Source of the DNA: Vicia villosa
Lineage: Eukaryota > Streptophyta > Magnoliopsida > Fabales > Fabaceae
Direction of reading: 5' to 3'
NCBI RefSeq assembly: GCF_029867415.1
Contig: NW_026705774.1
Location: forward strand, 310,001 to 374,000
DNA: 64,000 nucleotides
Shown: positions 29,535 through 60,887 of the stretch, one piece after another
How the letters are laid out: every line of letters begins with the position of its first letter
Position numbering within the stretch: the first letter of the stretch is position 1
The notes under the pieces: generated by a model
The model's input: only the letters and a program-made list of their open reading frames with translations
What the model was told of the DNA's origin: nothing
Database searches by the model: none
Translations under genes and position numbers: made by a program

Positions 29535-32500
29535 TCATACATCATGCTCAGCCAAAATGTCGAGTTCTCTTCGAATCATGAAGAAGGGTTCTTTTGCAAG
29601 CGGTTTTGTAAAAATATTCGCTAGTTGATTATGTGTTTCAACGAATGAAACTTCGACGTCACCTTTAAGAATATGATCGCGTAGGAAATGATGTCGTATG
29701 TCAATATGTTTGGTTCTTGAGTGCATGACCAGATTATTTGTAATATTGATTGCAATGTGTTGTCACACTTTAGAGGAATGCATCCAAGATTTTAGTCGTA
29801 GTCACTTAGTTGTTGTTTTAACCATAAGATTTGAGCGCAACAACTTCCTGCTGCAATGTATTCTACTTCAGTCATTCTAAGAGAGACACATGCTTGTTTC
29901 TTGCATGACCATGATACTAATGTGTTTCCTAAGATGTGACAAGTTCCACTCGTACTCTTGTGATCAGCTTTGCAACCTGCATAATTCGCGTTAGAATAAC
30001 TAAGTAAATCACATACACTACCTTTTGGATACAATAGAGCGATATTTGTTGTTCCTTGAGATATTTCATGATCCTTTTACCGTCATGAGATGTGAGTCCT
30101 TCAGATTTGCTTGAAAGCGGGCACGCAGACATACACTAAACATTATGTCAGGATGACTTGTCGTCAAATATAATAATGACCAACCATACCTCAATATTTT
30201 GTAATATCTATCGAAACACCAGATTCATCTTGATCTACATATGTACCGGATCCCATAGGATTAGCCATTATTTTGCAATTATCCATATCTAATATTTTCA
30301 ATAGTTCCTAGCAATACTTAGATTGATTTATGACGATACCATTTTTTAGTTGCTTAATTTTAAGCCCATGAAAGTAGTTCATCTTTCCCATCATAGACAT
30401 TTCGAATTCTCCTTGCATTATTGATGAGAATTCTTAACACAATTCTTTGTTTGTTGAACCGAATATGATGTCGTCAACATAGACTTGAACTAATAAAATA
30501 TAATTTTTAATTTTCTTTATAAACAAAGTCTTGTAAACTTTACCTTTTTTAAAACCTTTTTTTGCATAGAAAGTTGCTAAAACGATCATACCATGCTCTT
30601 GGTTCTTGCTTTAAACCATAAATAGCCTTTTTCAACTTGACGACATGTGAGGGATTCTTGAAGTCTTCAAAGTCAGAGGGTTGTTTGACATAGACTTCTT
30701 CATTGATGTATCCATTCAAGAAGGCGCCTTGACGTCCATTCGAAAAAGCTGAAAATTTAATGAGCAAGCATAAGCAAGTAAAAGACGAATAGCTTTTAAC
30801 CTTGCAACCGAAGCGAAATTTTCTTCAAATTCGATTCCTTTTTCTTGATTATACACTTGAGCCACAAACCTTGCTTTGTTTTGAACAATTATACCATTCC
30901 CATCAAGCTTGTTCTTAAACACCCATCTGGTACCTACGGTGTGTTTATTACTTGGCCTAGGAACAAGTTCCCAAACTCGATTCGTTTCGAATCAGTTTAA
31001 CTCTTCTTGCATAGAAATTATCCATTAGTTGTCTCTTAAGGCTTCATTAACTTTGGAAGGTTCAATTTAAGAGACAAACGCCATGTTCAAACAAGCATCT
31101 TGAAGATTTAGTCTTGTTGTAACGCCTTGACTAATATCACCAATGACTTTATCAATTGGATGATCTCTATGAGTTATCCATTCCTTAGGTAGATCATTGA
31201 CATTTGACTCTTGTTGAATAAGTTCTACTTGATGTTCCGATTGATTCTCATTGTTGAATTTGGAGGTATCTTCTTGAGGAATTATTACTATATCATCATC
31301 ATTACAAAAAATAATATCCTCCTTGGAACATAATATTTATTTTTTGTATATCTAGGAACATGCATTGATTTACTTTCTCTTGGGGTTAGATTCATCAAAA
31401 TATACATGCATTGATTCTTCAATGTTTAAAGTTCTTGTGTTAAATATTCTAAAAGCTTTACTAGAAAGAGAATAGCCCAGAAAAATACCTTCATCAGATT
31501 TTTCATCAAACTTACCAAGATTGTCTTTGTCTTTGTTTAAGACAAAAAATTTACATCCAAAAATGTGGAAGTAAACAATGTTTGGTTTCCTTCCTTTAAA
31601 GAGTTCATACGGAGTCTTCTTCAAAATAGGTCTAATATTAACTCTATTACTTACAAAACATATTGTGCTAACCGCATCCACTCAAAAGTACTTAGGAAGA
31701 TTTGAATCGCTAAGCATTATTCTTGCAAGTTCCACAAGAGACCTATTATTTCTCTCCACCAATCCATTTTGTTGAGGAGTCTTCGGTGCTGAGAAATTAT
31801 GAGATATTCCATGTTCTCCGCAAAATTCTTCAAAAGAAGCATTTTGAAATTCTCCACCATGATCGCTTATTATGGAGTAAATTGTTAGTGATTTCTCATT
31901 TTGAATTTGCTTTACATTTTTCTTGAATGCCTTGAATGCATCACTTTTTTGCACTAAAAAGAATGTCCAAGTGTATCTAGAGAAATAGTCAACAATAACT
32001 AAAGGATATACATTACCTCCGAAGCTTCTTGTTCTTTATGGACCAAATAAGTCCATATGCAACAATTGTAGTGGCCTTGTAGTGGACACCATATTCTTAG
32101 ATTTGAAAGTTGATTTTGTTTGTTTCCCTTTTTGACATGCATCACAAAGTCTATCTTTGATAAACTTTATCTTAGGCAATCCAACGACAAGATCATGCTT
32201 GATTAGTTTATTCAAGTGTTCCATATGAATATGACCAATTCTTTTGTGCCAAAGCCATAAGTCATTATTGTTCGCCATGAGACATTTTACCTTCAAAGAT
32301 AAATCATCAAGGGAAATCATAAATATATTATTAACTATTTTACCTTTAAGTGTAACCTCATGTGTGACTTCATATTCTATTAAGCATTCATCTTTAGTGA
32401 ACTTGATCTTGAATCCTTTGTCACAAAGTTGGCTAATACTAAGAAGATTGTGCTTTAGTCCTTCAACATAAAGAACATATTCAATGGATGTGAAAGGTGG

Positions 32501-41570: not shown

Positions 41571-41786
41571 ATGCTTACAGGTATATTTCCTTCATAAACT
41601 CCATTATATACACACACTTTGTCATATATATGTAATTGTTCATACTTGTTCATGTTTGTCCATGTTTGTTCATACTTGTACATATTTGTGATTGTGTTAT
41701 ATATACTTGTTCAACTTAGTACAACACTAGGTTCTGTTAGAACAAGATTTGTTCTGATCAATATTCTTAGTTTTGATGATAACAAG

Positions 41787-43925
41787 TGTAACACCCCACA
41801 CATATTTGTCTAGAATAATATGCATAAAGTATCATAAATGGTTCATAAGACAACAAATACATAAAGTTTTGCAGCAGAAAGTAGAAGTACACGATTACAA
41901 AAGCCGAATGTATCATGGCCAAAATACAAGTACATCATGTAAGTACATATCCAAAATACATAAACTAGCAAGCACGATAAGAACTAGAAGAATATCCAAG
42001 CATCGCCAAGAGATCTAATCCATCTTTCCCTTACCGCGATCTTGCCTCGAACCACCTGAAAAATAAATAATTGGAATGGGATGAGATTACTAAATCTCAG
42101 TGAGTCCGCCTATCCTATTAGTCCACTCGGATCTAAAGGGAACGTACAAAAAAAAAATACACGAATCCACCATGGATTCGGGGTTACTCTCACTTCCGGT
42201 ACACGCACGGAGTAAACAAGCGACTCGTCCACCATTGGACTTGTCTCAAGCAAATACACATTGTATAGCAACCAAGTATGCAAAACCCGCATCCATAACG
42301 GGGAATCCAGAAGTACGTTAATACCACTAGACTAAGTTACTAACACACCCTCGGTGGGTTCACCCACGCCTATATGTCGAGAGACTTACACAAGCACCCT
42401 GCAAGAATGGTTAAACGGGTTCGCACAAGCCTACGTGGCTGCGAGGTGACCTTGCCTAAGAGGCGACACCGTCCCATTAACCATATGTACGCACGTGGTG
42501 TTAACAGCAAGTGTAACACGCCGTCTCGACGCATGAGCCCATCCGGGTAGGAACCTAATGATGTAGCCTACATGGCATCATTAGAGATGGTTTACCTGTT
42601 ATGCGTAGGCTTACTTAGCCGCATATCGCCATCATACCGAGCACGCGAGTGTGTATACAGCAAGTGAGTAAAACGCCTCCAGGCCCTCACAAGCACACTG
42701 CAACGGTAGTTCAGGTATGCGCCTCTGGGATCCAAGATCAGGGCAGTCCCACAGACAACTCAAGGACCCGTGGTCCGAATCGTAACTTAGTACCTGGTCT
42801 ACTTCGATTCAGCACACGTACATAAACAAGCACTAAAGCATACAAGCACACAAACCCGATTGTTTAACCGAAACAATGGGCATTAATAGAATGATCATAA
42901 TTCATCATAATATAGCATTCTTATTTCAGCATAACATGGTAGTCAGAAATAATGAACTAATTCAGTCTAATTATACGCAAGTTGCATAGCATCAGTGTCG
43001 CACTTTAACTGAAGGTATGTCAGATACACCGGAAAATAATATTCCAACACCGATACTAATTTTCCTAGATAGTACACTCAACTAGCTTTCTAACGGTATA
43101 TGGTACGCGTCGAACGGACGCACGAAACGGGAGATATGAATTTCCCAAGATTGCTGAATTTTTACCCTGCGCCCAGGGTAATCGGTTACTGGTCCCAGAG
43201 TAACCGATTACTGGCTTCAAAAATGCCCATCCACGCCAAATTACACAGGGTAATCGGTTACCCAGGTCCCAGTAACCGATTACTCTGATGCAGAATCAAT
43301 TTTCTGCGTTTTAGGAACTCTAAACCAGTCCCAAACAACCTGTAGATGATCCCCTACACTTGTATAACAGTCCAAACGAATTTGCATCACATAATTGCAA
43401 ATAGAAACATTAGCATACAAAGAATAGGGCAAAACAAACAGATTTAGCATCATTGATTAACACTTCACTCATAATCCCTAAACCCCAATTGAACCCTTAC
43501 ATGCAAAACTCCCAAGGTCACTAACTATGGACTCACCTTAGGAGTGAAGGAGATGATGAAAACAGAGCTGAAACAAGATGAAGATGATGATGGAAGCAAG
43601 GTTTTGGGACAGAATCTGCTGCATGCAAGTGAGCTTGGACCAAGTGTTGGAACTTTCTCCTCTTCCTCCCCCTTTCCACGTTTTGTCTCTTCTTCCTCTA
43701 CTAAACAAAATTCTGGTTTTTGGAAAGAAGAGAATGATCAACCAAACATGTCCCAAGTTATATTTAAGGGTGAAAATACTATTATGCCCCTCCTATTGCC
43801 ACTAATAGGTTTAGTTAACACCATAAACCAATTAGTAGAAATATATATCATATTCATCCATCTTATTTCATACTAATCATATTAGCAAATATAAAGATTG
43901 AATAAATATAATATCGGGTATTACA
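41787..43925 (-). repeat. 3' LTR of the Tekay/Del-type chromovirus
   Basis: Same 2139-bp sequence as the 5' LTR with two visible substitutions. Begins right after the polypurine tract on the minus strand. Confidence 0.97.
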
Positions 43926-43970
43926 TTCTCCCCCCCTTAAATAGAATTCGTCCTCGAATTCAAAGGAAAC

Positions 43971-46900
43971 TTACCAAAACAAGTGAGGATAGGATTCCCG
44001 CATCTCTGACTCAAGTTCCCAAGTAGCCTCCTCAGGACGCGTCCCATCCCACATCACCTTCACGATAGGTATCTCCTTACTCCGGAGGGACTTGCTAGCA
44101 CGCTCCAAGATACAGCAAGGTTGAGGATCATAGGAAAGATCTGGTTCTACCTCCACAGAATCCGGGAGGATAGGATGAAAGGTATCAGGCACGAACTTTC
44201 GGAGCTGAGATACGTGGAATACGTCATGCAGCCCGGATAGTGAAGGTGGTAATGCCAACTGATAAGCCACTTCACCTACCCGACTCATAATCTGATACGG
44301 TCCCACATATCTCGGACTGAGTTTACGCGTTTTGAACGGTCCTCCCAACCTTAATCTTGGAGTGACCTTCAAATACACATGATCACCCACTTCAAATTCC
44401 AAAGGTCTTCTCCGCTTGTCCGCATAATTCTTTTGTCGGTCTTGGGCTTTCTTGAGATTATCTCGGATCATCTTAACTTTCTTGGTGGTTTCTTGTATAA
44501 TTTCCGGTCCAAGAATACTCTTCTCTCCTACCTCGGCCCAACACAAGGGTGATCGACATTTTCTCCCGTATAGAGCTTCATAGGGAGCCATACCCAAACT
44601 AGCATGGTAACTGTTATTGTATGCGAACTCTATCAATGGCAAATGATCTTTCCAACTCCCACCTTCTTCTAGAATGCAAGCTCTCAACATATCCTCTATC
44701 GTCTGGATCGTCCTCTCCGTCTGCCCATCGGATTGAGGATGGTTTGACGTACTCATATCCAATCTAGTCCCTAATTCCTTATGAAACATCTTCCAAAATC
44801 TTGAAGTGAATTTTGGATCACGATCAGACACTATACTGGACGGAACGCCATGCAACCGTACAATCTCTGCTATGAAAAGCCTTGCGAGATGAATCACCTT
44901 GTGAGTGGTCTTTACAGGCAAAAAGTGAGCAGACTTAGTCAACCTGTCCACTATTACCCATATCGAATCATGTCCGCCTCGAGTACGAGGTAATCCCACA
45001 ATGAAATCCATAGAGATAGAGTCCCATTTCCACGTCGGTACCTCCAGTGGTTGTAACATTCCTCCTGGTTTCTGATGCTCAATCTTAACCTGTTGACAAA
45101 TGGGACATTGTGCTACATACTCTGCGATCTCCTTCTTCATCCCTGGCCACCAAAAGTCTTTCCTCAAGTCTTGATACATTTTGGTCGACCCAGGATGAAT
45201 AGAAAATCTACTCTTGTGTGCTTCATCCAGAATCAAACGCTTCAATTCAGAATCATTAGGTACACACATCCGTTGCTTAAACAAGATTACTCCATCAGGT
45301 GCTCTCACAAAATTAGGCATGCCTTCGCTCGCTTGCAATTGCTTATCATACCCTTGGAATATCCGAATTCTTTCTCGTAGCTCATTCTGAATGCTCAAAT
45401 TACTGATCAACACACCATTGGGTGTCCATTCAAACTGAAGATTTAGATTGCGAAACCTTTCCAATAAGTCATGTTCTAACATCATCAACTCTGCAACTCG
45501 AAATTCCTTCCTACTTAACGCATCTGCAACTTTGTTAGCTTTTCCTGGATGATACTTCAATTCAAAGTCATAATCCTTGAGGTACTCCATCCATCTCCTT
45601 TGTCGCATATTCAACTCCTTCTGGTCGAAAAGATATCTCAAGCTTTTATGATCACTGAACATCTCAAAGTGAACGCCATATAGGTAATGTCGCCACACCT
45701 TGAGTGCAAAAACTATTGCGGCAAGCTCGAGATCATGGGTCGGGTAATTCTCTTCATGAGATCTCAACTGTCGAGAGGCATAAGCTACCACCTGGCCATC
45801 TTGCATCAATACTCCACCTAAACCCTTCTTAGAAGCGTCACAGAACACCTCATAGGATCGGTTTGGATCCGGAATCACTAACACGGGTGCAGTAGTCAAC
45901 TTCTTCTTAAGTTTCTGGAAACTCTGCTCACACTCGGAGTCCCATTCAAAAGCAACCTCCTTACGCGTAAGCTTTGTCAAGGGTAGGGCTAACTTAGCAA
46001 ACCCCATGATAAACCTCCGGTAATAACCAGCCAAGCCTAAAAAGCTTCTGACCTCAGTCACGCTTTTTGGCCTCTCCCAATTTACCACCGCTTCTACTTT
46101 AGAAGGATCCACTGCCACGCCTCCTCCAGAGATGACGTGACCAAGAAAACTCACTTCAGATAGCCAGAATTCACACTTACTGAACTTGGCATACAATTGT
46201 TTCTCTCGAAGAGTAGATAACACAATCCGCAAATGCTCCTCATGATCCTCGGGAGTACGAGAATACACAAGAATGTCATCAATGAAGATTACTACAAACT
46301 GGTCCAGATATGGTTGAAAGATTCGATTCATGTAATCCATGAAAACAGCCGGAGCATTAGTCACACCGAATGGCATAACCAAAAACTCGTAGTGACCATA
46401 TCGTGTCCTGAATGCAGTCTTAGGCACATCAGAGCTCTTCACTCGGATTTGATGGTACCCTGACCTAAGATCAATCTTCGAGAATACACTGGCTCCTTTC
46501 AACTGATCTAGGAGGTCATCAATCCGTGGTAAAGGATATTTGTTCTTTATGGTGACTTTGTTCAGCTGACGATAATCGATGCACAGGCGCATACTTCCGT
46601 CTTTCTTTTTCACTAAAAGAACAGGGGCTCCCCATGGAGAAACACTGGGTTGAATAAAATGCTTAGCAAGAAGCTCTTCCAATTGACGTTTCAGTTCTCT
46701 GAGTTCAATAGGAGACATCCTATAAGGAGTGATGGAAACTGGGGCTGTCCCAGGAACAAGATCGATTGAGAATTCCGCTTCTCTTTCTGGAGGAAGAGAA
46801 GTGATATCCTCAGGGAATACATCAGGAAATTCGCACACCACCGGAATCTCCGACAATTCAATCCTCACAGAAGGCTCCTTGGAAAGAACTAAAAGAAAGG

Positions 46901-48377
46901 ATCTTTCTTGAGAAAAGAGATAATTAACCGTGCTGATTGTACCTTCTATTAACTTGGTAATTGCATCATCGGAAGAAATCTCTTCAGCAGGAATGAATAT
47001 GGCCTTCTCTTTGCAACCAATGTACACTGAGTTAAGAGACAACCAATCCATCCCTAGGATAACATCAAGCTTCTTGAGGGGTAAACAAATTAAATCAATC
47101 GGGAAGTCACGACCATTAAAAGACACCGAACAATCTTTACAAATCAGTCGAGCTTCCACAGTATCATCCGTTGCCGAAGAAATAATCATGGGAGTGGGTA
47201 ATGGAGTAACTTCCAAACCAAGTCGATAAACACACTCGGTAGAGACAAAAGAATGAGTGGCTCCACAATCAACTAAAACACATAAAGGTTGATTGTTAAC
47301 ATAGCACGTACCCGCAATAAGATTGTTGTTTCCCTTTGCCTTCCTTGAATCCAAAGTGTAGACACGACCTGCAGTCTTTCCTGGAGCTCCCTTCTTTGGG
47401 CAATTCCTCATCACGTGACCTTGCTCGCCACACTCAAAACATCTGACAGGATAAACTTCACAATTTCCAGTGTGCTTCCTCCTACACTTATCACAAAAGG
47501 GTGGTCGGGGGAAACGGTCACCGTGGCTTTGCTTCATCTTTGGTGGAGGATTACGGGGCCTCAAGTTTTGAGTAGATCTCCCTTGCTCTCTGAAATTAGC
47601 CCTGTTCTGGTTCCTCTCTTCCTGAACCCTTTTCAAACTGTTTTCAGCAACATAGCATTGTCTTAGACATTCAGCATAAGTGGTGAACTCTCTTTGGGAA
47701 ACGCTATGGGCAATGTCGGCCCTCAAACCCATCATGAACTGATCGATCTTCCATAATTCATCTGGAGCATAAACAGCCTGTCTGGAGTAGTCTGCCAAGT
47801 CCTCGAACTTCTCTGCATATTCTGAAACAGACATGTCACCTTGTTTGAAGTTCTGAAATTCTCGCTCCTTCTGAGTTCTCACACTATTAGGAAAATACTT
47901 CTCCAAGAATGCAACCTTGAAGTGTTGCCAATCCTTAGGAATCTCCTGTGTGGTGAAATAAGTGGATGCAGTGTTCCACCACCTAAGAGCTGGTCCCTTC
48001 ATTTTCTGAGTAGCAAAGATCACCTTCTCTTCTTCAGTACACTGAATAGCTTGAAACACCCTCTCCATACCAGCTAACCAATCATGAGCCAAGAGTGAGT
48101 CAAGTCCACCAACGAACTCCGGAGGATCCATCCTGAAGAAGGCACGAAAATCTGGTCCAGCTGCAGCTTGAGGTACGGGAGCTTGAGTAGGAGGTTGTTG
48201 TCCTTGCATGCCTTGCATCATTTGAGCCATCATCTGGTTCTGCTGCATCATCTGCTGCATCATCTGTTGCCAAGGCACGCCTGCACCTCCGGCTGATTGC
48301 TCGGGCTCCACATTCCTTGTTCTGGGCCTTCCGGGGCCTCTGCGTTGCTCAGCCATCTCCCTGTCTGTCCTACGCAT
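43971..48377 (-). CDS. Chromovirus gag-pol polyprotein, 1468 codons, intact
   Basis: Likely true start is [11 protein letters not shown] at 48356, seven codons inside the frame. Gag (about 1-300) has [20 protein letters not shown] and the [10 protein letters not shown] region, then two Cys/His clusters ending in the knuckle [16 protein letters not shown] (~315). Protease has VDCGATHSF (~370), RT spans ~555-745 with FIDDILVYS, and RNase H starts at ~860 ([13 protein letters not shown]). The integrase finger and core lie at ~1060-1290 ([34 protein letters not shown]). The terminal chromo-like domain is [12 protein letters not shown] to [16 protein letters not shown]. The residue before the catalytic glycine of the protease is Cys instead of the usual Ser/Thr; the aspartate is kept. 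No stops or frameshifts. Confidence 0.96.
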
Positions 48378-48512
48378 GGAATCAAGTTGATCAGGCTTAA
48401 TACCATAAATAAGACATAAGGAATCTTACTGATTATACACATATGAGGCAGAATTGTACTGCATTATGATGTGTCTTAGCAAAGTCGAGGATCGACCTGC
48501 TCTGATACCAAC

Positions 48513-50651
48513 TGTAACACCCCACACATATTTGTCTAGAATAATATGCATAAAGTATCATAAATGGTTCATAAGACAACAAATACATAAAGTTTTGCAG
48601 CAGAAAGTAGAAGTACACGATTACAAAAGCCGAATGTATCATGGCCAAAATACAAGTACATCATGTAAGTACATATCCAAAATACATAAACTAGCAAGCA
48701 CGATAAGAACTAGAAGAATATCCAAGCATCGCCAAGAGATCTAATCCATCTTTCCCTTACCGCGATCTTGCCTCGAACCACCTGAAAAATAAATAATTGG
48801 AATGGGATGAGATTACTAAATCTCAGTGAGTCCGCCTATCCTATTAGTCCACTCGGATCTAAAGGGAACGTACAAAAAAAAAATACACGAATCCACCATG
48901 GATTCGGGGTTACTCTCACTTCCGGTACACGCACGGAGTAAACAAGCGACTCGTCCACCATTGGACTTGTCTCAAGCAAATACACATTGTATAGCAACCA
49001 AGTATGCAAAACCCGCATCCATAACGGGGAATCCAGAAGTACGTTAATACCACTAGACTAAGTTACTAACACACCCTCGGTGGGTTCACCCACGCCTATA
49101 TGTCGAGAGACTTACACAAGCACCCTGCAAGAATGGTTAAACGGGTTCGCACAAGCCTACGTGGCTGCGAGGTGACCTTGCCTAAGAGGCGACACCGTCC
49201 CATTAACCATATGTACGCACGTGGTGTTAACAGCAAGTGTAACACGCCGTCTCGACGCATGAGCCCATCCGGGTAGGAACCTAATGATGTAGCCTACATG
49301 GCATCATTAGAGATGGTTTACCTGTTATGCGTAGGCTTACTTAGCCGCATAACGCCATCATACCGAGCACGCGAGTGTGTATACAGCAAGTGAGTAAAAC
49401 GCCTCCAGGCCCTCACAAGCACACTGCAACGGTAGTTCAGGTATGCGCCTCTGGGATCCAAGATCAGGGCAGTCCCACAGACAACTCAAGGACCCGTGGT
49501 CCGAATCGTAACTTAGTACCTGGTCTACTTCGATTCAGCACACGTACATAAACAAGCACTAAAGCATACAAGCACACAAACCCGATTGTTTAACCGAAAC
49601 AATGGGCATTAATAGAATGATCATAATTCATCATAATATAGCATTCTTATTTCAGCATAACATGGTAGTCAGAAATAATGAACTAATTCAGTCTAATTAT
49701 ACGCAAGTTGCATAGCATCAGTGTCGCACTTTAACTGAAGGTATGTCAGATACACCGGAAAATAATATTCCAACACCGATACTAATTTTCCTAGATAGTA
49801 CACTCAATTAGCTTTCTAACGGTATATGGTACGCGTCGAACGGACGCACGAAACGGGAGATATGAATTTCCCAAGATTGCTGAATTTTTACCCTGCGCCC
49901 AGGGTAATCGGTTACTGGTCCCAGAGTAACCGATTACTGGCTTCAAAAATGCCCATCCACGCCAAATTACACAGGGTAATCGGTTACCCAGGTCCCAGTA
50001 ACCGATTACTCTGATGCAGAATCAATTTTCTGCGTTTTAGGAACTCTAAACCAGTCCCAAACAACCTGTAGATGATCCCCTACACTTGTATAACAGTCCA
50101 AACGAATTTGCATCACATAATTGCAAATAGAAACATTAGCATACAAAGAATAGGGCAAAACAAACAGATTTAGCATCATTGATTAACACTTCACTCATAA
50201 TCCCTAAACCCCAATTGAACCCTTACATGCAAAACTCCCAAGGTCACTAACTATGGACTCACCTTAGGAGTGAAGGAGATGATGAAAACAGAGCTGAAAC
50301 AAGATGAAGATGATGATGGAAGCAAGGTTTTGGGACAGAATCTGCTGCATGCAAGTGAGCTTGGACCAAGTGTTGGAACTTTCTCCTCTTCCTCCCCCTT
50401 TCCACGTTTTGTCTCTTCTTCCTCTACTAAACAAAATTCTGGTTTTTGGAAAGAAGAGAATGATCAACCAAACATGTCCCAAGTTATATTTAAGGGTGAA
50501 AATACTATTATGCCCCTCCTATTGCCACTAATAGGTTTAGTTAACACCATAAACCAATTAGTAGAAATATATATCATATTCATCCATCTTATTTCATACT
50601 AATCATATTAGCAAATATAAAGATTGAATAAATATAATATCGGGTATTACA
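48513..50651 (-). repeat. 5' LTR of the Tekay/Del-type chromovirus
   Basis: TGTAATACCCG to GGTGTTACA on the minus strand, next to the primer-binding site. It contains four GTAATCGGTTAC/GTAACCGATTAC words at about 49904-50009. Confidence 0.97.
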
Positions 50652-50656
50652 ACAAG

Positions 50657-51811
50657 GATATGAATTTTGTGTGAGATAATGTGGTACTCTAATACATTGC
50701 AATTTCCCTTTCAGGAAATATATAAAGAGTATGCACAAATCAGCGCTCAGAAGCTTTGTCTCAGAAGGTTCAGCATGCAACATCAGAACATGGTCTGGCA
50801 AGACATCAGAAGATGGTCAAGGCAGAATCAGAACATGGGTCTATGGAAGCATCAGAAGAACTTGAGATCAGAAGCAGCAGCACTGAAGTTCTCATGGTAT
50901 CACGCTCAGAAGCACTTCAAGGTCAGAAGACAGGAAGATACTATGCACCAAGCTGTTTGACTCTAATGATATTCAAATGTTGTATACACAAACATCAGAT
51001 CAGAAGAAAGTACAGGTGGCAGGCTACGCTGACTGACAAAAGGAACGTTGGAAGCTATTAAAGGCAACGTCAGTAGACACAGTGTGAACAAGGCTCGAGG
51101 TAGTTGACAAAAGCGTGAAACATTAAATGCAATGCTGTACGGAATATGCAAAGCATTAAATGCTCCCAACGGTCATCTTCTCAAGTGCCTATAAATATGA
51201 AGTTCTGATGAGAAGCAAGGTTGACGATTTGCTAACAATAAACTTGCTGAAACGCTGTTCAAACTCAAAGCTCAGAAACTTCATCTTCATCAAAGCTCAC
51301 TACATTGCTGTTGTAATATATTAGTGAGATTAAGCTTAAACGTTAAGAGAAATATCACTGTTGTGATTATAGCTTTTCAGAAGCATTGTAAAACTCTTAT
51401 TTGATTACATTAATTTGTAAGTAACTAGAGTGATCAAGTGTTGATCAGGATACTCTAGGAAGTCTTAGCTTGTGTCTAAGCAGTTGTAATTAGAGTGATC
51501 ACGTGGTGGTCAGGATACTCTAAGAAAGTCTTAGCTTGTGTCTAAGCATTTGTTCCTGGAGTGATCAGGTTGTGATCAGGATACTCTAGAAGACTTAGTC
51601 GCGGACTAAGTGGAAAACCATTGTAATCTGTTGCGATTAGTGGATTAAATCCTCAGGTGAGGTAAATCACTCCGTGGGGGTGGACTGGAGTAGTTTAGTT
51701 AACAACGAACCAGGATAAAAATAACTGTGCAAATTGTTTTTATCGTTCAAGTTTTTAAGACTACACTTATTCAAACCCCCCCCCCCTTTCTAAGTGTTTT
51801 TCTATCCTTCA
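50657..51811 (+). repeat. Main part of the Sirevirus 5' LTR
   Basis: Matches 59727-60882. It includes three ~65-bp units at about 51428-51612 (each with GAGTGATCA...GATCAGGATACTCT and TCTTAGCTTGTGTCTAAGCA-type parts), CTATAAATATGAAG near 51189 as TATA element, and a C-run near 51776. The first 52 bp lie at 41735-41786, beyond the nested chromovirus. Confidence 0.93.
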
Positions 51812-51897
51812 ATTGGCATCAGAGCGCCGGTTCTAAGGTGCAAGCACTTAACCGTGTTTAGAAAAGATTCAGGAAGAGAAAAACGCTTCAGTAAAAG

Positions 51898-54800
51898 ATG
51901 GCTGGTGAAATTTCAACAAATACATCTGCATCTACATCTGGCTCTGCTAAGCAATACAACGATAACAATGGTTATACTAGACCACCAGTACTTGATGGTG
52001 AAAACTTTGAATACTGGAAAGATAAACTGGAAAGTTACTTTCTTGGTCTAGATGCTGATCTATGGGATCTTCTGTTGGATGGTTACAAACATCCTGTTAA
52101 AACTACTGGTGTAAAGCTCACAAGAAGCGAAATGACTGATGATCAAAAGAAAGAATTCAAAAATCATCACAAATGCAGGACTGTTTTGCTGAATGCTATC
52201 TCTCATGCTGAGTATGAGAAGATATCTAACAGGGAAACTGCCCATGATATATATGAGTCATTGAAAATGACCCATGAGGGAAATGCTCAAGTCAAGGAGA
52301 CTAAAGCTCTTGCTCTAATCCAGAAATATGAAGCCTTCAAGATGGAGGATGATGAAGATATTGAGAAGATGTTCTCAAGATTTCAAACTCTAACTGCTGG
52401 ATTGAGAGTTCTGGATAAAGGCTACACCAAGGCTGATCATGTAAAGAAGATTATCATAAGCTTACCCAGAAGATGGGGTCCAATGGTGACTGCATTCAAG
52501 ATTGCCAAGAATCTGAATGAAGTTTCTTTGGAAGAGCTTATCAGTGCCTTGAGAAGCCATGAAATAGAGCTGGACGCAAACGAGCCTCAGAAGAAAGGTA
52601 AGTCTATTGCATTAAAATCTAATGCTAAAAAATGCACTAACGCTTTTCAGGCTAGAGAAGAAGATCCTGAGGAATCAGAATCTGAAGAAGAAGATGAACT
52701 GTCCATGATCTCTAGAAGGGTAAACCAACTCTAGAAGAGCAAGCAAAGGAAGTTCAGAGGCATCAGAAGTTCAAAGAGATTTGAACGTGGAGAATCTTCT
52801 GGGGACAGAAGATCTAACAAGAAGAAGGCTGTCTGCTATGAGTGCAATGAGCCTGGACATTACAAGAACGAGTGTCCAAAACTTCAGAAGGAGAATCCCA
52901 AGAAGAAGTTTCATAAGAAGAAAGGTCTTATGGCAACATGGGATGATTCTGAATCAGAATCAGAATCAGACTCTGAAGAAGAGCAGGCCAACTTCGCGCT
53001 GATGGCTACAGAAGATGATGGATCAGAATCTACATCAGAATCAGATTCTGAAGAGGTATTTTCTGAACTATCTAGAGAAGAGTTAGTTTCCAGTTTAACA
53101 GAACTTCTGGAACTCAAGGCTCATCTTAGTATCAAATACAAAAAGCTGAAGAAGCAGTTTGAATTTGAAACTAAGAAGCTGGAAGTGGAAAATTCTGAAC
53201 TGAAGGAAAAAGTTTTAAATCTATCCAAAGATAGTGGATCTCCTTCTGAAACAGAAAAATCCATTCCTAGCATGAATCATATTCTGAAAGAATATGACTC
53301 GAGCTTCAGAAAGTTCTTATCTAGAAGTATTGGCAGAAGTCATCTTGCTTCTATGATATATGGTGTTTCTGGAAACAGAAGGTTTGGTTTTGGCTATGAG
53401 GGTGATACCTCACATAAATTTGAACCTATTGATGATCTGAAAATCACATACAAGCCATTGTATGATCAGTTCAAATATGGCCATGCACATGATATTAGGC
53501 TCACTTCACATGCATAGAAGTTTAACACTGTTCACACCAAGAAGCTTGTGACACATTCTAAGAAATATCATGCTGACAAACCTAAAGAATATCATGCTGT
53601 TCCTCCTGTTAAATATTTTGCTAAACCCAAGTTCAATCAGAACTTGAGGAGAACTAACAAGAAAGGACCCAAGAAATTGTGGGTACCTAAGGAGAAGATA
53701 ATTTCTGTTGCAGATATCCTTGGCAGCAAAGAGGACAAAAAGCAAAATGTCATGGTACCTGGACTCTGGGTGCTCGCGACACATGACGGGAAGAAGGTCT
53801 ACATTCCAAGACCTGGTGCTTAAACCAGGTGGAGAAGTCAAGTTTGGAGGAGATCAGAAGGGCAAAATCATTGGCTCTAGAACCATAAGTATTGGTAACT
53901 CTCCTTCCATAACTAATGTACTTCTTGTAGAAGGATTAACGCATAACTTATTGTCCATAAGTCAATTAAGTGACAATGGTTATGATATAATCTTCAATCA
54001 AAAGTCTTGCAAGGCTGTAAGTCAGAAGGATGGCTCAATCCTATTTACAGGCAAGAGAAAGAACAACATTTATAAGATAGATCTTTCTGATCTTGAGAAG
54101 CAGAAGGTAACTTGTCTTATGTCTGTTTCTGAGGAGCAATGGGTCTGGCACAGAAGATTAGGACATGCTAGTTTGAGAAAGATTTCTCAGATTAACAAAC
54201 TAAATCTGGTCAGAGGACTCCCAAATCTGAAATACAAATCAGATGCTCTTTGTGAAGCATGTAAGAAGGGCAAGTTCTCTAGACCTGCATTCAAGTCTAA
54301 GAATGTTGTTTCTTCCTCAAGGCCGTTAGAACTCTTGCACATTGATCTGTTTGGCCCAGTCAAAATGGCATCTGTCAGAGGGAAGAAATATGGATTAGTC
54401 ATCATTGATGATTATAGCCGCTGGACATGGGTAAAGTTCTTGAAACACAAGGATGAGTCTCATTCAGTGTTCTTTGAATTCTGCACTCAGATCCAATCTG
54501 AGAAGGAGTGCAAAATCATAAAGGTCAGAAGTGATCATGGTGGTGAATTTGAGAACAAATTCTTTGAGGAGTTCTTCAAAGAAAATGGTATTGCCCATGA
54601 TTTCTCTTGTCCTAGAACTCCACAGCAAAATGGAGTTATAGAGCGAAAGAATAGGACTCTACAAGAAATGGCTAGAACCATGATCAATGAAACCAATATG
54701 GCTAAGCATTTCTGGGCAGAAGCAATAAACACTGCGTGTTATATTCAGAATAGAATCTCTATAAGACCTATTCTAAATAAGACTCCTTATGAATTGTGGA

Positions 54801-55294
54801 AGAACAGAAAGCCCAACATTTCATATTTCCATCCTTTTGGATGTGTTTGTTTTATTCTGAATACTAAAGATTATCTTGGTAAGTTTGATTCTAAAGCACA
54901 AAAGTGTTTCCTTCTTGGATATTCTGAACGCTCTAAAGGCTACAGAGTATACAATACTGAAACATTGATTGTAGAAGAATCAATCAATATCAGGTTTGAT
55001 GATAAGCTTGGTCTTGAAAAACCAAAGCAATTTGAGAATTTTGCAGATTTTGATATTGATATATCAGAAGCAGTAGAACCTAGAAGCAAAGCTGCAAAAG
55101 CTGGCAGTCTCAGAAGCAATGGATCAGAAGATCAAGTTGCTGCATCTTTAGAGAATCTCAGGATTTCTGAAGAACCAACAGTCAGAAGATCACCTAGACG
55201 TGCTTCAGCTCATTCAGAAGATGTGATCCTTGGAAAGAAAGATGATCCTATCAGAACAAGATCATTTCTAAAGAATGACAATCAGAAGCAGTGA
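51898..55294 (+). pseudogene. Sirevirus gag-protease-integrase, disrupted
   Basis: Starts MAGEISTNTS shortly after the primer-binding site. The gag UBN2-type domain (LDGENFEYWKDKLESYF) runs to a TAG at 52732-52734; the same frame continues with the zinc knuckle CYECNEPGHYKNECPK, an acidic Ser/Glu region and a coiled coil to a second TAG at 53515-53517, and on to about 53,750. A two-base loss there shifts to the frame that encodes the protease YLDSGCSRHMTG, the WHRRLGHASL and CEACKKGKFSRP finger, and the integrase core (DDYSRWTW, SDHGGEFEN, TPQQNGVIERKNRT), ending at 55294 after the GYSERSKGYRVYN region. RT should follow and does not. Three defects make a full Gag-Pol impossible. Confidence 0.9.
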
Positions 55295-55694
55295 TCAGAA
55301 TCAGAAGGCGTAAAGTCTATTCAAAAATTTACTGCTGTCATCTATTATCTGATGGTGAACATGTGTATGTACGGTTAGTACAAAGCGTGCAGTTGAAAAG
55401 ACGCCGACCTAGGTAACTGTGTTAAATCATTTCATTTACCACGTTCTCTCACCTAACGTCACTTATCATTTAATGTAAATTGATTTCTCGTGATTCTGTA
55501 ACTGTTCATTTTCTAATCTTATTTCATTTTTTTTAATCCGTATCTATATTTTCTTTTCAAATCATCTCATATATCTTTTCCGCTCCTTGTCCCTCTTTCT
55601 TCTTGCATACTCTCTATTGAAACCTTCTTAGTCGCTTCTAAAACCCTAACCGAAAACCCAGAATTTGTTCTTCCTTGTTGTTCATTCTGTTTCA
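55295..55694 (+). other. Junction where Sirevirus RT/RNase H is missing
   Basis: 400 bp of non-coding sequence connects the integrase C-terminus to the env-like ORF, ending in a pyrimidine-rich leader. No RT or RNase H motif can be found here or between the env-like ORF and the 3' LTR, where a complete Sirevirus would have roughly 2 kb of coding sequence. Confidence 0.85.
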
Positions 55695-58457
55695 ATGGCT
55701 GCTTCTTCATCTCAAAATGTTGATTCATCTACTCCTCTCCATATTCAAGATGAAGAAAATCAGGAACTCACTCCAGTCGTTGCGTGCTCCATTCCTAAGG
55801 ATAAATTAGAAGTTCTATGTGAACTCATGGTTGATTTTGATAACATTGAAGAACACGATTTTCATCTCAAAGAAGATATAATTTTTCAAGGATGGACTTC
55901 GTTGTTCGCTGAGTTCTGTGGACCAGTCTACCCAGATCTTGTCAAGGAATTCTGGGTACATGCAGTTGTCGCCCCTAAATCAATCTTGTCCTTCGTCCAT
56001 GGAAAGTTTGTGGTAGTGTCTGAGAACATCCTAAGGATGATGTTTGATCTGAGAAACGCTGAGGGAGCTTTTGAAATCGATCAAAGGGTAAATTGGAAAG
56101 ATGTTTTATCTACTCTCTACCCAAACATAAATGAAACAAAGAATGTCAAGGACTTGAGAGATCTCTACAAAATCTGGACCAAGATTCTTCTTGGGTGTTT
56201 CTATCACAGGAAAGGGACACATGCTTCTGACTTCATCAACAATGAGCAAAAATACATTCTGTATTGCATTGCCACTAAGAAGAAGGTTGATGCTATCTAC
56301 ATTATCTTCAACCATATGTGGAAGGCTGTGAAGGAGTCCAGAAATGCCTTCAGAGAAAAAAGTTGTACCATCATTCCGTTTGGTAGAATTATCTCAAATC
56401 TTTTGGCTCATTCCAAGATTGTTGAGGACTTGGAATCTGAAGGTATTATCAAAGACCTTGCTGTCACCTCTGGGGCCTGCCTGAATGCTTTCACGTTAAA
56501 GAAGATGAAAGTGATTAAGGCTATCATTAAGACTCCCCAACCTCTTGCTGGAACAAGAATCAAAAGAAAACCCGTTCTAGCTGTATTTGGAACCTTCTTC
56601 ATTAGTGAGGTACCAAAAGTCAGAACGAGGTATCTGAAGTCACAAAAAGAGGATAAAAGTCTTAAAGATCAAGAGAAAGGTGCTCCAATTATAGTAAATC
56701 GCAAGAAGGAAGAAAGGACCAAAAGAAAGTTTGATCATCCTGCTGCTACCACTGAGAAAGAAGTGGTCCCAGAAGAAGTCATTGCAAAGGTTGTTAAGGC
56801 TGTTTCTGTTGATTTTGAGAAGAAAAAGAAGGAAGCTGAGAAAAAGAAGAAGAAGTCAAATAACAATGCTGAGATTGTTGAAGTTGTTGAGAAGAAGAAA
56901 ACCAGAAAAAGGAAGATGATTCTTCAAGAATCTGATGAAGAAAATGTTGTTCAAGAGGCTGTGAATCAACAGGAAGTTCTGGCAAGCGTTAGAAGGAAAG
57001 AGATCTCTAGTGGCAAAACAAAAATTGTTGAAGAGCCGAAGAGTAAGAAGCAGAAGAAGACTGAGGCTGTGGTCAAAGCTCTTCAGAAAGCATCCAAAGG
57101 TATATGTATTTCTGAACCTGATTCTACTCCTGCTGGTATTTCAGAAGTTGCACCAATAGCGGTTGCCCCTATCCCTGAACCAGAAAAAGACACATCAGAA
57201 TCACCTATAACTATCCATGTTCTTACACCTCCATCTTCTCCTGTAACCATTCGTTCTTCTCCACCCACCATCAATCCTGTTCTGGATATACCACCCCTTC
57301 AAACTCTCTTTCCACCTCACACAAATATCTCCATCTCTCAACCTCCTCCCCATGCCAACTTTGAACCCATTCCTTCTACCTCTCAAAACTACCATAGTGG
57401 TTCTGATCTTCCAACCTCTGCATCACATGAACAGCTACTCCGTGATTGCAACTACACTCCCAAGCCTCGTCCTGAAGCTGAAGTGGTAGTGTTAGATTCT
57501 GATACTGAAGCAGAATCTTCTTATAGATTGGATAGAGAACCTCAACCTTATTTCATCCCCAACCCTGCCTTTTCAAAAACCAAAATAAAATCCCGCCTTG
57601 TCCACCCTATTGGTGTAATTTTTGAAAAAGTAAAGAGGAATCTCAGAAGTATCTTTGACACCCTCAGAATTGTTGAAAGTTCTGGCCTGAATAACGTCGC
57701 TATGAGGAAGTTCTGGAGGATCTTACGCAGAGAATCAGATGCTCTATTTATAGAACTTCAGGAAGCCTGTGTTGAAGCTGCTCCATGGCCTCGTGGAATT
57801 CTGAGAAGCTATGAAGACTTCTGGTTTGCCCGTCTCAGAGGAAGATATACCTTGGAAGAAAAGCCCTTGGTGGATGAATTGGAAGTAGCAAGATTGGCTG
57901 CTGCATTGGAAGCTAATCCTTGCAGGGAAATTGTGGTCTGGAGACCTCAATATCCAGTTCTGCTCGGGGATTTCAAGACCCTCTTTGACTTTTTGAGGGA
58001 AAACCCTTCTATGGAAGACCCAAGCTTGGTCATTCCAGAAGTTGTTGACCCACAAGAAGTTGAAGGTCCTTCTGCCCCCAGGAATCTAGCTGCCATTCTT
58101 CAGGCACTTGAGAATGGAGATTCTGAGATTCCGGCTGCAGAATATGAAGATGCTTCTATGCAAGAAGCAGATGTAGAGGATCATGTTGCTGAATCAGTTC
58201 CTGTTGAGAAAAATCCTGTAAATGATCTGACTATGGAAGCCACGGATCAGAATGCCATCCCTGTGGATAGAAGCTGTGAAGCTTCTTCTGATGAACCTTC
58301 CCGTCTTGCAAGGACTCTGGAAGTTCTTCAGAAGAACCAGGATGAGCAAAGCTCAGTCAATGCTGAGTTTAGAGCTTTCATAGAGAAGCATAATGAGCAC
58401 AACAATGGGGTTCAAGAGATGCTGGCCAAGATCTTGTCAAGGCTAGGGTCATCTTAG
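55695..58457 (+). CDS. Sirevirus env-like ORF, 920 codons
   Basis: Begins at MAASSSQNVD (the open frame extends ten codons upstream without ATG). Residues ~30-290 form a globular region with KEFWVHAVV and KSILSFVHGK, similar in style to the putative plant transposon proteins found beside Athila and Sirevirus pol. Residues ~300-480 are Lys/Glu-rich and probably disordered or coiled, and ~485-600 are Pro/Ser-rich (ITIHVLTPPSSPVTIRSSPP). The rest is acidic, with a C-terminal coiled coil (LEVLQKNQDEQSSVNAEFRA). I see no convincing transmembrane segment or signal peptide, so an envelope role is unproven. There are no stops or frameshifts, unlike gag-pol upstream. Function unknown. Confidence 0.85.
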   Translation: MAASSSQNVDSSTPLHIQDEENQELTPVVACSIPKDKLEVLCELMVDFDNIEEHDFHLKEDIIFQGWTSLFAEFCGPVYPDLVKEFWVHAVVAPKSILSFVHGKFVVVSENILRMMFDLRNAEGAFEIDQRVNWKDVLSTLYPNINETKNVKDLRDLYKIWTKILLGCFYHRKGTHASDFINNEQKYILYCIATKKKVDAIYIIFNHMWKAVKESRNAFREKSCTIIPFGRIISNLLAHSKIVEDLESEGIIKDLAVTSGACLNAFTLKKMKVIKAIIKTPQPLAGTRIKRKPVLAVFGTFFISEVPKVRTRYLKSQKEDKSLKDQEKGAPIIVNRKKEERTKRKFDHPAATTEKEVVPEEVIAKVVKAVSVDFEKKKKEAEKKKKKSNNNAEIVEVVEKKKTRKRKMILQESDEENVVQEAVNQQEVLASVRRKEISSGKTKIVEEPKSKKQKKTEAVVKALQKASKGICISEPDSTPAGISEVAPIAVAPIPEPEKDTSESPITIHVLTPPSSPVTIRSSPPTINPVLDIPPLQTLFPPHTNISISQPPPHANFEPIPSTSQNYHSGSDLPTSASHEQLLRDCNYTPKPRPEAEVVVLDSDTEAESSYRLDREPQPYFIPNPAFSKTKIKSRLVHPIGVIFEKVKRNLRSIFDTLRIVESSGLNNVAMRKFWRILRRESDALFIELQEACVEAAPWPRGILRSYEDFWFARLRGRYTLEEKPLVDELEVARLAAALEANPCREIVVWRPQYPVLLGDFKTLFDFLRENPSMEDPSLVIPEVVDPQEVEGPSAPRNLAAILQALENGDSEIPAAEYEDASMQEADVEDHVAESVPVEKNPVNDLTMEATDQNAIPVDRSCEASSDEPSRLARTLEVLQKNQDEQSSVNAEFRAFIEKHNEHNNGVQEMLAKILSRLGSS

Positions 58458-59092
58458 ATTGAGTCTTAGTTGTTTTGTTTTTGCTGCATCTGTTTAGTGC
58501 ATCTTGTCTTCCTTCTCTTCGTGTACTTCTGTACTTGTCTGTTTGAGCTTTAATGAAAATCATCTTAGATTGTGTGTTTCTTTTTGTTTTTATCTGAATC
58601 TTTTATATTTTTGATGATATGACAAAAAAGGGGGAGAAATATGTGATAAATGATTTGATTTAATCAGTTGCTTTACTAACAGAACTTGCAAAGTTCTATG
58701 TTTTTAAGTTGTGCTGTTGCAGGAATTGAAGATTCTCTTTAAAGATCAACATGAGAAGCAACAAGATAAATCAAGTTCTTGGATTCTTGAAGCAAGCTGA
58801 GTGCTATGAAGCTTCAAAATCAGGATCAGAAGCAAGAAGGAAAAATGTTCAGATATTCTGATGATAGAATATGATCTAAAACATTATGTCTATTTGTTCT
58901 GATACATTCTATATGGCTTATATGGCTCTGATACATATTATGTGTTCTGAAACATATTTTATGTTCTGATTCATTCATGCTGACTTTTGTCGTTTAGTTT
59001 TGTTCTGTAACATTTCAGGATGTAGAGATGCTTTGATGAAGCTCTGGTACATTCAACAATGTTCTGATACATTCTAGCATGAAGTGATGAAA

Positions 59093-59440
59093 GAAGAAAT
59101 TCAAGCTCTGAAGCTGTCCCAATGGAAGCAGGAATCAGAAGCTGTGAATGTTCTGAAGATCAAAGAAATTCAAGTTCTGAAGCTGTCCCAATGGAAGCAG
59201 AAATCAGAAGCTGTGAATGTTCTGAGGATCTAAAGAAATTCAATGTTCTGAAGCTGTCCTATGGAAGCAGGAATCAGAAGCTGTGAATGTTCTGAAGATC
59301 AAAGAAATTCAAGTTCTGAAGCTGTCCGATGGAAGCAGAAATCAGAAGCTGTGAATGTTCTGAGGATCTAAAGAAATTCAATGTTCTGAAGCTGTCCTAT
59401 GGAAGCAGAAATCAGAAGTCATGAATGTTCTGAAGATCAA
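59093..59440 (+). repeat. Five tandem ~69-bp repeats upstream of the Sirevirus 3' LTR
   Basis: Units starting at about 59101, 59170, 59240, 59309 and 59378 share AAGAAATTCAA..TTCTGAAGCTGTCC, ATGGAAGCAG(A/G)AATCAGAAG and GTGAATGTTCTGA(A/G)GATC. Alternate units resemble each other best, giving a higher-order period of ~139 bp. Confidence 0.9.
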
Positions 59441-59512
59441 GCACTGTGAACGTCTCTACTGAAATACTCAGGGAAGTCTTTTATTTATAAAATTCTTCTA
59501 GTATTAATTGCA

Positions 59513-59674
59513 GGGGGAGATTATTCATCTCAGGGGGAGATTGTTAATCTCAGGGGGAGACATATTCACATGCTTATGCTATAGCTGTGTAAATTGTCTT
59601 TAGCCGTCTGCTCTTTCTGATCGCAAATTCATATCATTTATATATGTTTTTGTCATCATCAAAAAGGGGGAGAT
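59513..59674 (+). promoter_or_regulatory. Multiple polypurine tracts of the Sirevirus
   Basis: Three copies of (T/G)CAGGGGGAGA at about 59511-59560, then the tract adjoining the LTR (AAAAAGGGGGAGAT, 59661-59674). Another copy (AAAAAAGGGGGAGAAAT) lies near 58625. Repeated polypurine tracts are a described Sirevirus feature; the last primes plus-strand synthesis. Confidence 0.85.
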
Positions 59675-60882
59675 TGTTAGAACAAGATTTGTTCTGATCA
59701 ATATTCTTAGTTTTGATGATAACAAGGATATGAATTTTGTGTGAGATAATGTGGTACTCTAATACATTGCAATTTCCCTTTCAAGAAATATATAAAGAGT
59801 ATGCACAAATCAGCGCTCAGAAGCTTTGTCTCAGAAGGTTCAGCATGCAACATCAGAACATGGTCTGGCAAGACATCAGAAGATGGTCAAGGCAGAATCA
59901 GAACATGGGTCTATGGAAGCATCAGAAGAACTTGAGATCAGAAGCAGAAGCACTGAAGTTCTCATGGTATCACGCTCAGAAGCACTTCAAGGTCAGAAGA
60001 CAAGAAGATGCTATGCACCAAGCTGTTTGACTCTAATGATATTCAAATGTTGTATACACAAACATCAGATCAGAAGAAAGTACAGGTGGCAGGCTACGCT
60101 GACTGACAAAAGGAACGTTGGAAGCTATTAAAGGCAACGTCAGTAGACACAGCGTGAACAAGGCTCGAGGTAGTTGACAAAAGCGTGAAACATTAAATGC
60201 AATGTTGTACGGAATACGCAAAGCATTAAATGCTCCCAACGGTCATCTTCTCAAGTGCCTATAAATATGAAGTTCTGATGAGAAGCAAGGTTGACGATTT
60301 GCTAACAATAAACTTGCTGAAACGCTGTTCAAACTCAAAGCTCAGAAACTTCATCTTCATCAAAGCTCACTACATTGCTGTTGTAATATATTAGTGAGAT
60401 TAAGCTTAAACGTTAAGAGAAATATCACTGTTGTGATTATAGCTTTTCAGAAGCATTGTAAAACTCTTATTTGATTACATTAATTTGTAAGTAACTAGAG
60501 TGATCAAGTGTTGATCAGGATACTCTATGAAGTCTTAGCTTGTGTCTAAGCAGTTGTAATTAGAGTGATCACGTGATGGTCAGGATACTCTAAGAAAGTC
60601 TTAGCTTGTGTCTAAGCATTTGTTCCTGGAGTGATCAGGTTGTGATCAGGATACTCTAGAAGACTTGGTCGCGGACTAAGTGGAAAACCATTGTAATCTG
60701 TTGCGATTAGTGGATTAAATCCTCAGGTGAGGTAAATCACTCCGTGGGGGTGGACTGGAGTAGTTTAGTTAACAACGAACCAGGATAAAAATAACTGTGC
60801 AAATTGTTTTTATCGTTCAAGTTTTTAAGACTACACTTATTCAAACCCCCCCCCCCCTTTCTAAGTGTTTTTCTATCCTTCA
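59675..60882 (+). repeat. Sirevirus 3' LTR
   Basis: Uninterrupted copy, TGTTAGAACAAG to TATCCTTCA, directly after the polypurine tract. It shows the intact state of the 5' LTR before the chromovirus arrived, including the uninterrupted AACAAGGATATG target. Confidence 0.96.
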
Positions 60883-60887
60883 GGTTC

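What the first reader, a model, noticed from the sequence alone, without database searches (positions are those of the whole stretch)
41735..60882. RT-less Sirevirus with young LTRs and an intact env-like ORF
The element has no RT or RNase H, and gag-pol has two nonsense codons and a frameshift, yet its LTRs differ by only about ten bases and it has a clean target duplication. A deletion after insertion is possible, but the tidy junction between integrase and env-like ORF suggests a non-autonomous family copied by RT supplied in trans, with the env-like ORF under different constraint from gag-pol.
Basis: partly seen in the sequence, partly recalled or inferred. Interest (0 to 1): 0.8.

Follow-up and report, generated by a model that had tools for sequence, protein, structure and literature searches.

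The report
Reverse-transcriptase-less retrotransposon family in vetch
In a vetch genome, a jumping gene that has lost its own copying enzyme has still spread to dozens of places, apparently by borrowing that enzyme from a close relative which in turn lacks the full "envelope-like" gene that this one keeps.

Summary
Window 41735-60882 is a Sirevirus-type copia element with a nested gypsy element in its 5' LTR, a 5-bp target duplication and LTRs differing at 10 sites. So this is a mobile RT-less family (B1), not a private deletion. Correction: the "frameshift" is a gag/pol frame change shared by all copies compared, and the two stops are mostly private. Two more families emerged. Family A (RT-bearing, ~90% identical, young) lacks the full envelope-like ORF in 8 of 8 copies read. 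Family B2 lacks integrase and RT in 6 of 6 read, yet its envelope-like ORF looks constrained (omega 0.17 in the one pair compared). RT supply in trans by A is the best explanation (inferred, not shown). A mutual two-part system is the boldest reading not excluded.

The parts
41730..41734 (.). 5' target-site duplication GGTTC
   Evidence: identical to 60883-60887
41735..41786 (+). first 52 nt of the 5' LTR
   Evidence: 100% to 59675-59726
41787..50651 (-). nested Ty3/gypsy element inside the 5' LTR (LTRs 41787-43925 and 48513-50651; open frame 43971-48377 on the minus strand, RT before integrase; TSD ACAAG)
50657..51811 (+). rest of the 5' LTR (50652-50656 is the gypsy TSD copy)
   Evidence: 10 mismatches to the 3' LTR
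51812..51830 (+). primer binding site region next to the 5' LTR
   Evidence: sequence; the PBS assignment rests on the recalled TTGGTATCAGAGC type, no tRNA match was computed
51898..53823 (+). gag frame (PF14223), with in-frame stops at 52732 and 53515 in this copy
53702..55294 (+). pol frame: PF22936 barrel (protease region by recalled motif), GAG-pre-integrase, integrase core, SH3; overlaps the gag frame; ends at TGA 55292-55294
55279..55280 (+). join where RT and RNase H are missing: integrase C-terminus to linker (placed to within a few bases)
   Evidence: alignment to RT-bearing copies; same join in 30 of 30 loci read
55280..55694 (+). non-coding linker before the env-like ORF, 82-86% identical to the B2 linker
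55695..58457 (+). intact envelope-like ORF, 920 codons, PF20167 in its N-terminal part
58629..59672 (+). five AGGGGGAG polypurine octamers (58629, 59512, 59532, 59552, 59665), the last 2 nt before the 3' LTR
   Evidence: motif as in PMC2829016
59094..59440 (+). array of ~70-bp repeats in the 3' linker
59675..60882 (+). 3' LTR
60883..60887 (.). 3' target-site duplication GGTTC

Best explanation
This is one copy of a multi-copy, recently mobile, non-autonomous Sirevirus family (B1) that carries gag, protease, integrase and an envelope-like ORF but no RT/RNase H. Its RNA is most likely packaged and copied by RT/RNase H supplied in trans from a co-resident RT-bearing family (A), about 90% identical, that shares LTR, gag, integrase and polypurine signals. 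B1 looks like a mosaic: an A-like 5' part (LTR to integrase) joined at the integrase/RT boundary to a linker and env-like module like that of a second, more reduced env-bearing family (B2). Template switching between co-packaged RNAs is the likely way it arose. Shown: shared junction, distinct TSDs, young LTRs, absence of RT, existence and youth of A, signs of constraint on gag, integrase and env. Inferred: that A is the donor, co-packaging, and template switching.
For: 40 of 40 scored genome hits cross the junction; same TGA in 30 of 30; 5-bp TSDs that differ in this copy and 3 of 4 other singly inserted copies with both ends, LTR differences 10-17 per ~1210; no RT match in 30 of 30 junction loci nor between the LTRs in the pieces of 10 copies. 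The representatives of protein clusters P0021 (10 members) and P0022 (5 members) end at the same position as the window ORF; the members themselves were not seen. RT-bearing family: 150 of 150 scored RNase H hits at 99-100% identity; integrase end 90-91%, LTR 88-90% to the window; in three copies LTR pairs with 3, 6 and 8 mismatches and TSDs TCTAG, GCTTG, ACTAT. Constraint: shared variants have lower N/S than singletons in gag (p=0.023), PR-IN (p=0.0007) and the env 5' half (p=0.001). Mosaic: linker 82-86% to B2 in 6 of 6, only 54-93-bp patches to A in 6 of 6 tested.
Against: No expression, particle or transposition data. RT from another Sirevirus family is not excluded. One of four singly inserted copies with both ends has no perfect TSD. 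Env over its whole length in 11 copies shows no significant shared/single difference (p=0.26), and among shared variants there are 2 stops in gag and 1 in PR-IN. Search lists hold only the best-scoring copies, so copy numbers are lower bounds and intactness is over-represented. Some shared variants may predate RT loss or come by recombination. A's linker can be aligned to the window's with many gaps, so fast change of A's linker after losing env could mimic a mosaic; no trees were built.
Confidence: 0.85

Rival explanations
1. Private deletion: an autonomous Sirevirus inserted here and later lost RT/RNase H.
For: Young LTRs, damaged gag frame in this copy.
Against: The same junction and stop at tens of loci, sampled ones with other flanks and TSDs.
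Confidence: 0.02
2. Two-part (bipartite) retrotransposon: A supplies RT/RNase H, the B families supply the envelope-like protein, and both benefit.
For: Complementary gene content: A lacks the PF20167 part in 8 of 8 read; B1 and B2 lack RT but keep env; env looks constrained even in the IN-less, RT-less B2 (omega 0.17 in one pair; 0.08-0.13 over the first 250 codons between B1 and B2). Nearly all Sireviruses of several other eudicots carry the gene (passage of PMC3414828), so its loss in A is unusual.
Against: Nothing shows that A uses the env-like protein; one A copy has its own short env-like ORF with only the C-terminal part; most maize Sireviruses do without it (same passage).
Confidence: 0.13
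3. Plain parasite with a passenger env: B RNAs hijack A's RT and the env-like ORF is merely carried along.
For: Known precedents of parasites lacking part of gag-pol, barley BARE2 and RLC_Giselle (passages); within B1 env is not more constrained than gag or integrase; 5 of 11 B1 copies have a broken env.
Against: Between two B2 copies that both lack integrase and RT, env shows omega 0.17 at dS 0.25 over 500 codons; 121 of 121 scored B2-type hits have no stop in the matched 332 residues (a biased sample).
Confidence: 0.2
4. The RT-less form came from a spliced RNA that was reverse transcribed, removing RT/RNase H as an intron.
For: A subgenomic splice is known for BARE1 (passages).
Against: The window keeps the linker letters AATCAG, which a splice at the nearest AG would have removed; the linker matches B2 better than A.
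Confidence: 0.05

Closest known systems
Sirevirus genus (SIRE/Maximus lineage) of copia retrotransposons
   Same: copia domain order, pol in another frame than gag, env-like ORF after pol, repeated AGGGGGAG octamers with the last next to the 3' LTR, 5-bp TSD
   Different: RT and RNase H are missing from every B1 copy read
RLC_Giselle / RLC_Inga of barley (PMC5738225, passages read)
   Same: Copia non-autonomous family with potentially intact gag, proposed to depend on a close autonomous relative
   Different: Giselle lacks RT and integrase; B1 keeps integrase and an env-like ORF. B2 (gag plus env, no integrase core, no RT) is closer to Giselle but has env
BARE2 / BARE1 of barley (PMC3735527, passages read)
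   Same: A family-wide conserved lesion, with RNA packaged in particles although the element makes no Gag
   Different: BARE2 lacks Gag; B1 keeps gag and lacks RT/RNase H
Athila element with a PF20167 ORF in sunflower (PMC11728184, passages read)
   Same: Extra ORF with partial similarity to Transposase_32 (PF20167)
   Different: An Athila (recalled: Ty3/gypsy), not copia; that ORF has 487 aa; the passages read do not call the element RT-less

Membership tests
Sirevirus (copia) | copia gag and pol domains, integrase before RT | tested here: met
   PF14223, PF22936, PF13976, PF00665, PF25597 in order; RT follows integrase in RT-bearing relatives
Sirevirus (copia) | multiple AGGGGGAG polypurine octamers, one adjacent to the 3' LTR | tested here: met
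   five octamers, the last 2 nt before the 3' LTR; motif from PMC2829016 passages
Sirevirus (copia) | pol in a +1 frame relative to gag in many members | tested here: met
   shared frame change in the window and the 10 other copies compared; stated for Sireviruses in PMC2829016
Sirevirus (copia) | clustering within Sireviruses in an RT tree | not tested
   no RT in this family; an RT tree of family A was not built
Sirevirus (copia) | env-like protein with transmembrane and coiled-coil segments (as in PMC3414828) | tested here: inconclusive
   best 19-residue mean hydropathy 1.48 in the window ORF, 1.31-1.65 in three close relatives and 1.06 in a distant one, so no clear membrane span; coiled coil not tested; structure model useless at pLDDT 32.6
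Non-autonomous LTR retrotransposon | multiple retrotransposed copies lacking an essential pol function | tested here: met
Non-autonomous LTR retrotransposon | a related possible donor with matching LTRs in the same genome | tested here: met
   family A, LTR 88-90%, integrase end 90-91%
Non-autonomous LTR retrotransposon | demonstrated mobilisation in trans | not testable with these tools
   needs RNA, particle or transposition data

The most novel reading that the evidence does not exclude
A divided, mutually dependent retrotransposon: an RT-bearing family without the full envelope-like gene (A) and RT-less families with it (B1, B2) are packaged together and exchange functions, with mosaics such as B1 produced by template switching. 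The envelope-like protein would then be a needed shared part, not decoration.
Probability: 0.14. Interest if true: 0.85.

Novelty: new variant of a known kind. Interest (0 to 1): 0.62.

Why it matters
What the envelope-like ORF of plant Sireviruses does is an old open question; PMC3414828 calls its role highly controversial and says it may not be a true envelope gene (passage). Here two families lack RT, one of them the integrase core as well, yet keep this ORF with signs of purifying selection, while their likely RT donor lacks its full form in the copies read. That separates the env-like gene from pol function in one genome and makes its role testable by asking what B RNAs or particles lose without it. 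It also gives a natural case of RT supplied in trans with integrase retained.

Tried and rejected
Rejected: private post-insertion deletion; frameshift as decay; env-like ORF under clearly different constraint from gag-pol within B1; splice origin of the junction (weakly). Led nowhere: viral-contig scans with integrase and env found no relatives; AlphaFold model of the env-like ORF, mean pLDDT 32.6, so no fold search was run; the junction pattern census did not complete, so copy numbers stay lower bounds; a Pfam scan of the short A-family env-like ORF failed for wrong coordinates and was not repeated. No element with both RT and the full env-like ORF was seen, but only 8 of 150 RNase H hits were read downstream and 6 of 121 B2-type env hits upstream, so this is weak evidence of absence. 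Paper searches aimed at RT-less or non-autonomous Sireviruses (open-licence papers only, listings seen) showed no title or abstract describing such a family; full texts beyond those named below were not read. Papers: passages read of PMC3414828, PMC2829016, PMC5738225, PMC3735527, PMC4659654, PMC11728184, PMC11963269; abstract and outline of PMC3701649; the rest seen as listings only. The soybean non-autonomous elements of Wawrzynski 2008 and Du 2010 are recalled, not read.

Full report
What is in the window. The finding spans a Sirevirus-type copia element, 41735-60882, flanked by GGTTC on both sides. Its 5' LTR is interrupted after 52 nt by a gypsy element (41787-50651, TSD ACAAG, LTRs with 2 differences in 2139; RT before integrase in its open frame). 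The copia LTRs differ at 10 of 1207 compared sites, about 0.3 million years at the recalled grass rate of 1.3e-8. Pfam finds copia gag, then PF22936, GAG-pre-integrase, integrase core and SH3 domains, and PF20167 in the long downstream ORF; no RT model matches the ORFs scanned. Five AGGGGGAG octamers lie in the 3' linker, the last 2 nt before the 3' LTR, as PMC2829016 describes for Sireviruses (passages).

Organism. Contig C2 of the genome has 230603863 bases, the same length as the contig of a Vicia villosa protein; the genome is 2.03 Gb. I take it as Vicia villosa or something very near.

The junction is family-wide. A 701-base query across the integrase end, linker and env start gave 40 scored hits of 4111 first-look candidates, this copy included, and 40 of 40 cross it at 96-100% identity. 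In the 30 loci held, the stop codon TGA at 55292 is present in 30 of 30. For ten other copies I fetched the 5' and 3' sides separately. Four singly inserted ones had both ends: three have perfect and different 5-bp TSDs (AAAAG, ATCTT, TATAG), one has none that is perfect; their LTR pairs differ at 10, 16, 11 and 17 of about 1210 sites. Four others lacked one usable LTR, and two lie in a tandem array. A query with the RT/RNase H of a close relative hit nothing in the 30 junction loci, and in the pieces of the ten copies only stretches outside the LTRs (3 pieces). The representatives of protein clusters P0021 (10 members) and P0022 (5 members) end at the same position as the window's pol ORF; the member sequences were not seen.

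The frameshift is normal. In the 10 other copies compared (one without the 5' half of gag) pol lies in the same other frame; where the gag frame is open to its end the two overlap by about 120 nt. PMC2829016 states that many Sireviruses have pol in +1 frames relative to gag. The in-frame stops are mostly private: the first in 0 of 9 other copies with data, the second in 1 of 10. Copies with open gag and pol frames in the compared piece exist, so the family as a whole has not lost these genes.

Constraint within the family. I sorted variants among copies into singletons (mostly after insertion) and shared ones (mostly arisen in the spreading lineages) and compared N/S with the expectation from the same substitution types. 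Shared variants gave 0.35 in gag (10 copies), 0.26 in PR-IN (30), 0.46 in the first half of env (28), 0.52 in env overall (11). Singletons gave 0.72, 0.60, 0.93, 0.66. The non-coding linker read as codons gave 4.99 (14 shared sites) and 0.86. Fisher tests, shared against single: gag p=0.023, PR-IN p=0.0007, env first half p=0.001, env overall p=0.26, linker p=0.09 in the other direction. Against the reading: 2 shared stops in gag and 1 in PR-IN (plus one site where the majority has the stop). So gag, integrase and env show signs of constraint while the RT-less family spread; env is not more constrained than pol. The env piece (from codon 21) was open throughout in 6 of 11 copies, this one included.

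The RT-bearing relative (A). Searching the genome with the RNase H part of P0023 gave 150 of 150 scored hits at 99-100% identity without stops; by my count of the table, 94 have a pol frame of exactly 1064 codons. Only the best hits are listed, so this favours intact copies. In the 8 loci held, the integrase end is 90-91% identical to the window up to 55275; after the RNase H stop comes a linker that in 7 reaches the window's post-env region within 1500 nt, and in the eighth does so in the neighbouring piece. None has a match to the PF20167 part; protein-level matches to env occur in 2 of the 8 (and in the piece that continues one of them) and only to its C-terminal part. One has a short ORF (at least 355 codons) resembling env residues 614-882 at 37%; three have open stretches of about 140 codons with another start, not scanned for homology; four have shorter ones. 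In three copies LTR pairs differ by 8, 6 (with 27 gap positions) and 3 sites, with TSDs ACTAT, GCTTG and TCTAG. Their LTRs are 88-90% identical to the window's. Between window and A, omega is 0.14-0.18 in the first part of gag (3 copies) and 0.13-0.14 in the integrase end (4 copies), dS about 0.37.

Where the RT is missing. Against A, the window follows integrase to the residues FLKN and then continues near 55280 with the linker about 60 nt after the RNase H stop. About 1.6 kb is absent, almost exactly RT plus RNase H, and the new stop comes from linker sequence.

A second reduced family (B2). The env start of protein P0005 gave 121 of 121 scored hits at 92-95% identity, none with a stop in the match (again the best hits only). 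In 6 of 6 read upstream, gag runs to the protease region, the integrase core is gone, a broken integrase end remains, and then come linker and env; no RT match. Over the first 500 codons, B2 env against window env gives omega 0.17 and 0.20 (two copies, dS 0.76-0.86), with 0.08-0.13 in the first 250 codons (dS 1.0-1.3) and 0.31-0.33 after that. The two B2 envs against each other give omega 0.17 at dS 0.25. The gag tail of B2 against the window gives 0.44-0.75 in 6 copies. As both B2 copies lack integrase and RT, the env-like ORF seems to have stayed constrained without pol, unless the losses were independent and late; this rests on one pair.

Mosaic structure. Window linker 55276-55694 is 82-86% identical to B2 over nearly its whole length (6 of 6) but matches A only in 54-93-bp patches (6 of 6 tested), whereas LTR, gag and integrase are about 88-91% to A and the gag tail 78-81% to B2. 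A looser alignment does follow A's linker with many gaps. This fits an A-like 5' part joined to a B2-like 3' part, as template switching between two co-packaged RNAs would give; rapid change of A's linker after losing env is the alternative. That the linker is closer to B2 than the env synonymous sites are is not explained.

Mechanism. RNA of B1 carries the same LTR type and polypurine signals as A; A's RT/RNase H copies it, and B1's own or A's integrase inserts it. These steps are inferred; insertion by retrotransposition is shown by LTR pairs and TSDs. Precedents are the Gag-less but packaged BARE2 (passages) and barley RLC_Giselle without RT and integrase (passages). Unlike these, B1 lacks only RT/RNase H and keeps an env-like ORF whose full form the likely donor lacks. 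Whether the donor profits from that ORF is open. [quoted passage not shown]

Verdict. Observation confirmed; main interpretation supported; new variant of a known kind. After checking the calls I mended several details (gypsy LTR differences, what was seen of the protein clusters, scope of the omega values); none required a change of odds.

Noticed in passing
41787-50651: Nested Ty3/gypsy element with an open 1468-codon frame on the minus strand (gag, protease, RT, RNase H, integrase by Pfam) and LTRs differing at 2 of 2139 sites, very recently inserted.
   Followed up: partly
L006 and L010 (C769), pieces L039, L040, L047, L048: Two B1 copies in head-to-tail array about 9.1 kb apart, sharing an LTR with a 45-bp extra stretch; another primer-binding-site-like sequence follows the next LTR, so the array may be longer.
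   Followed up: partly
L056 with L062: One RT-bearing copy has a short env-like ORF without a match to the PF20167 part; other copies keep less or nothing recognisable, a possible series of env loss.
   Followed up: partly
55641-55649: The leader before the env-like ATG contains AAACCCTAA, a telo-box motif known (recalled) from plant promoters and leaders; the ORF may have its own promoter.
   Followed up: no
P0216 (Trifolium pratense): An annotated clover protein combines an RNase H part with PF20167, hinting at RT-bearing Sireviruses that still carry the ORF in other legumes.
   Followed up: no
window 4430-5938 and 29547-31084: RT-like sequences on the minus strand outside the element, presumably of other retroelements.
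   Followed up: no
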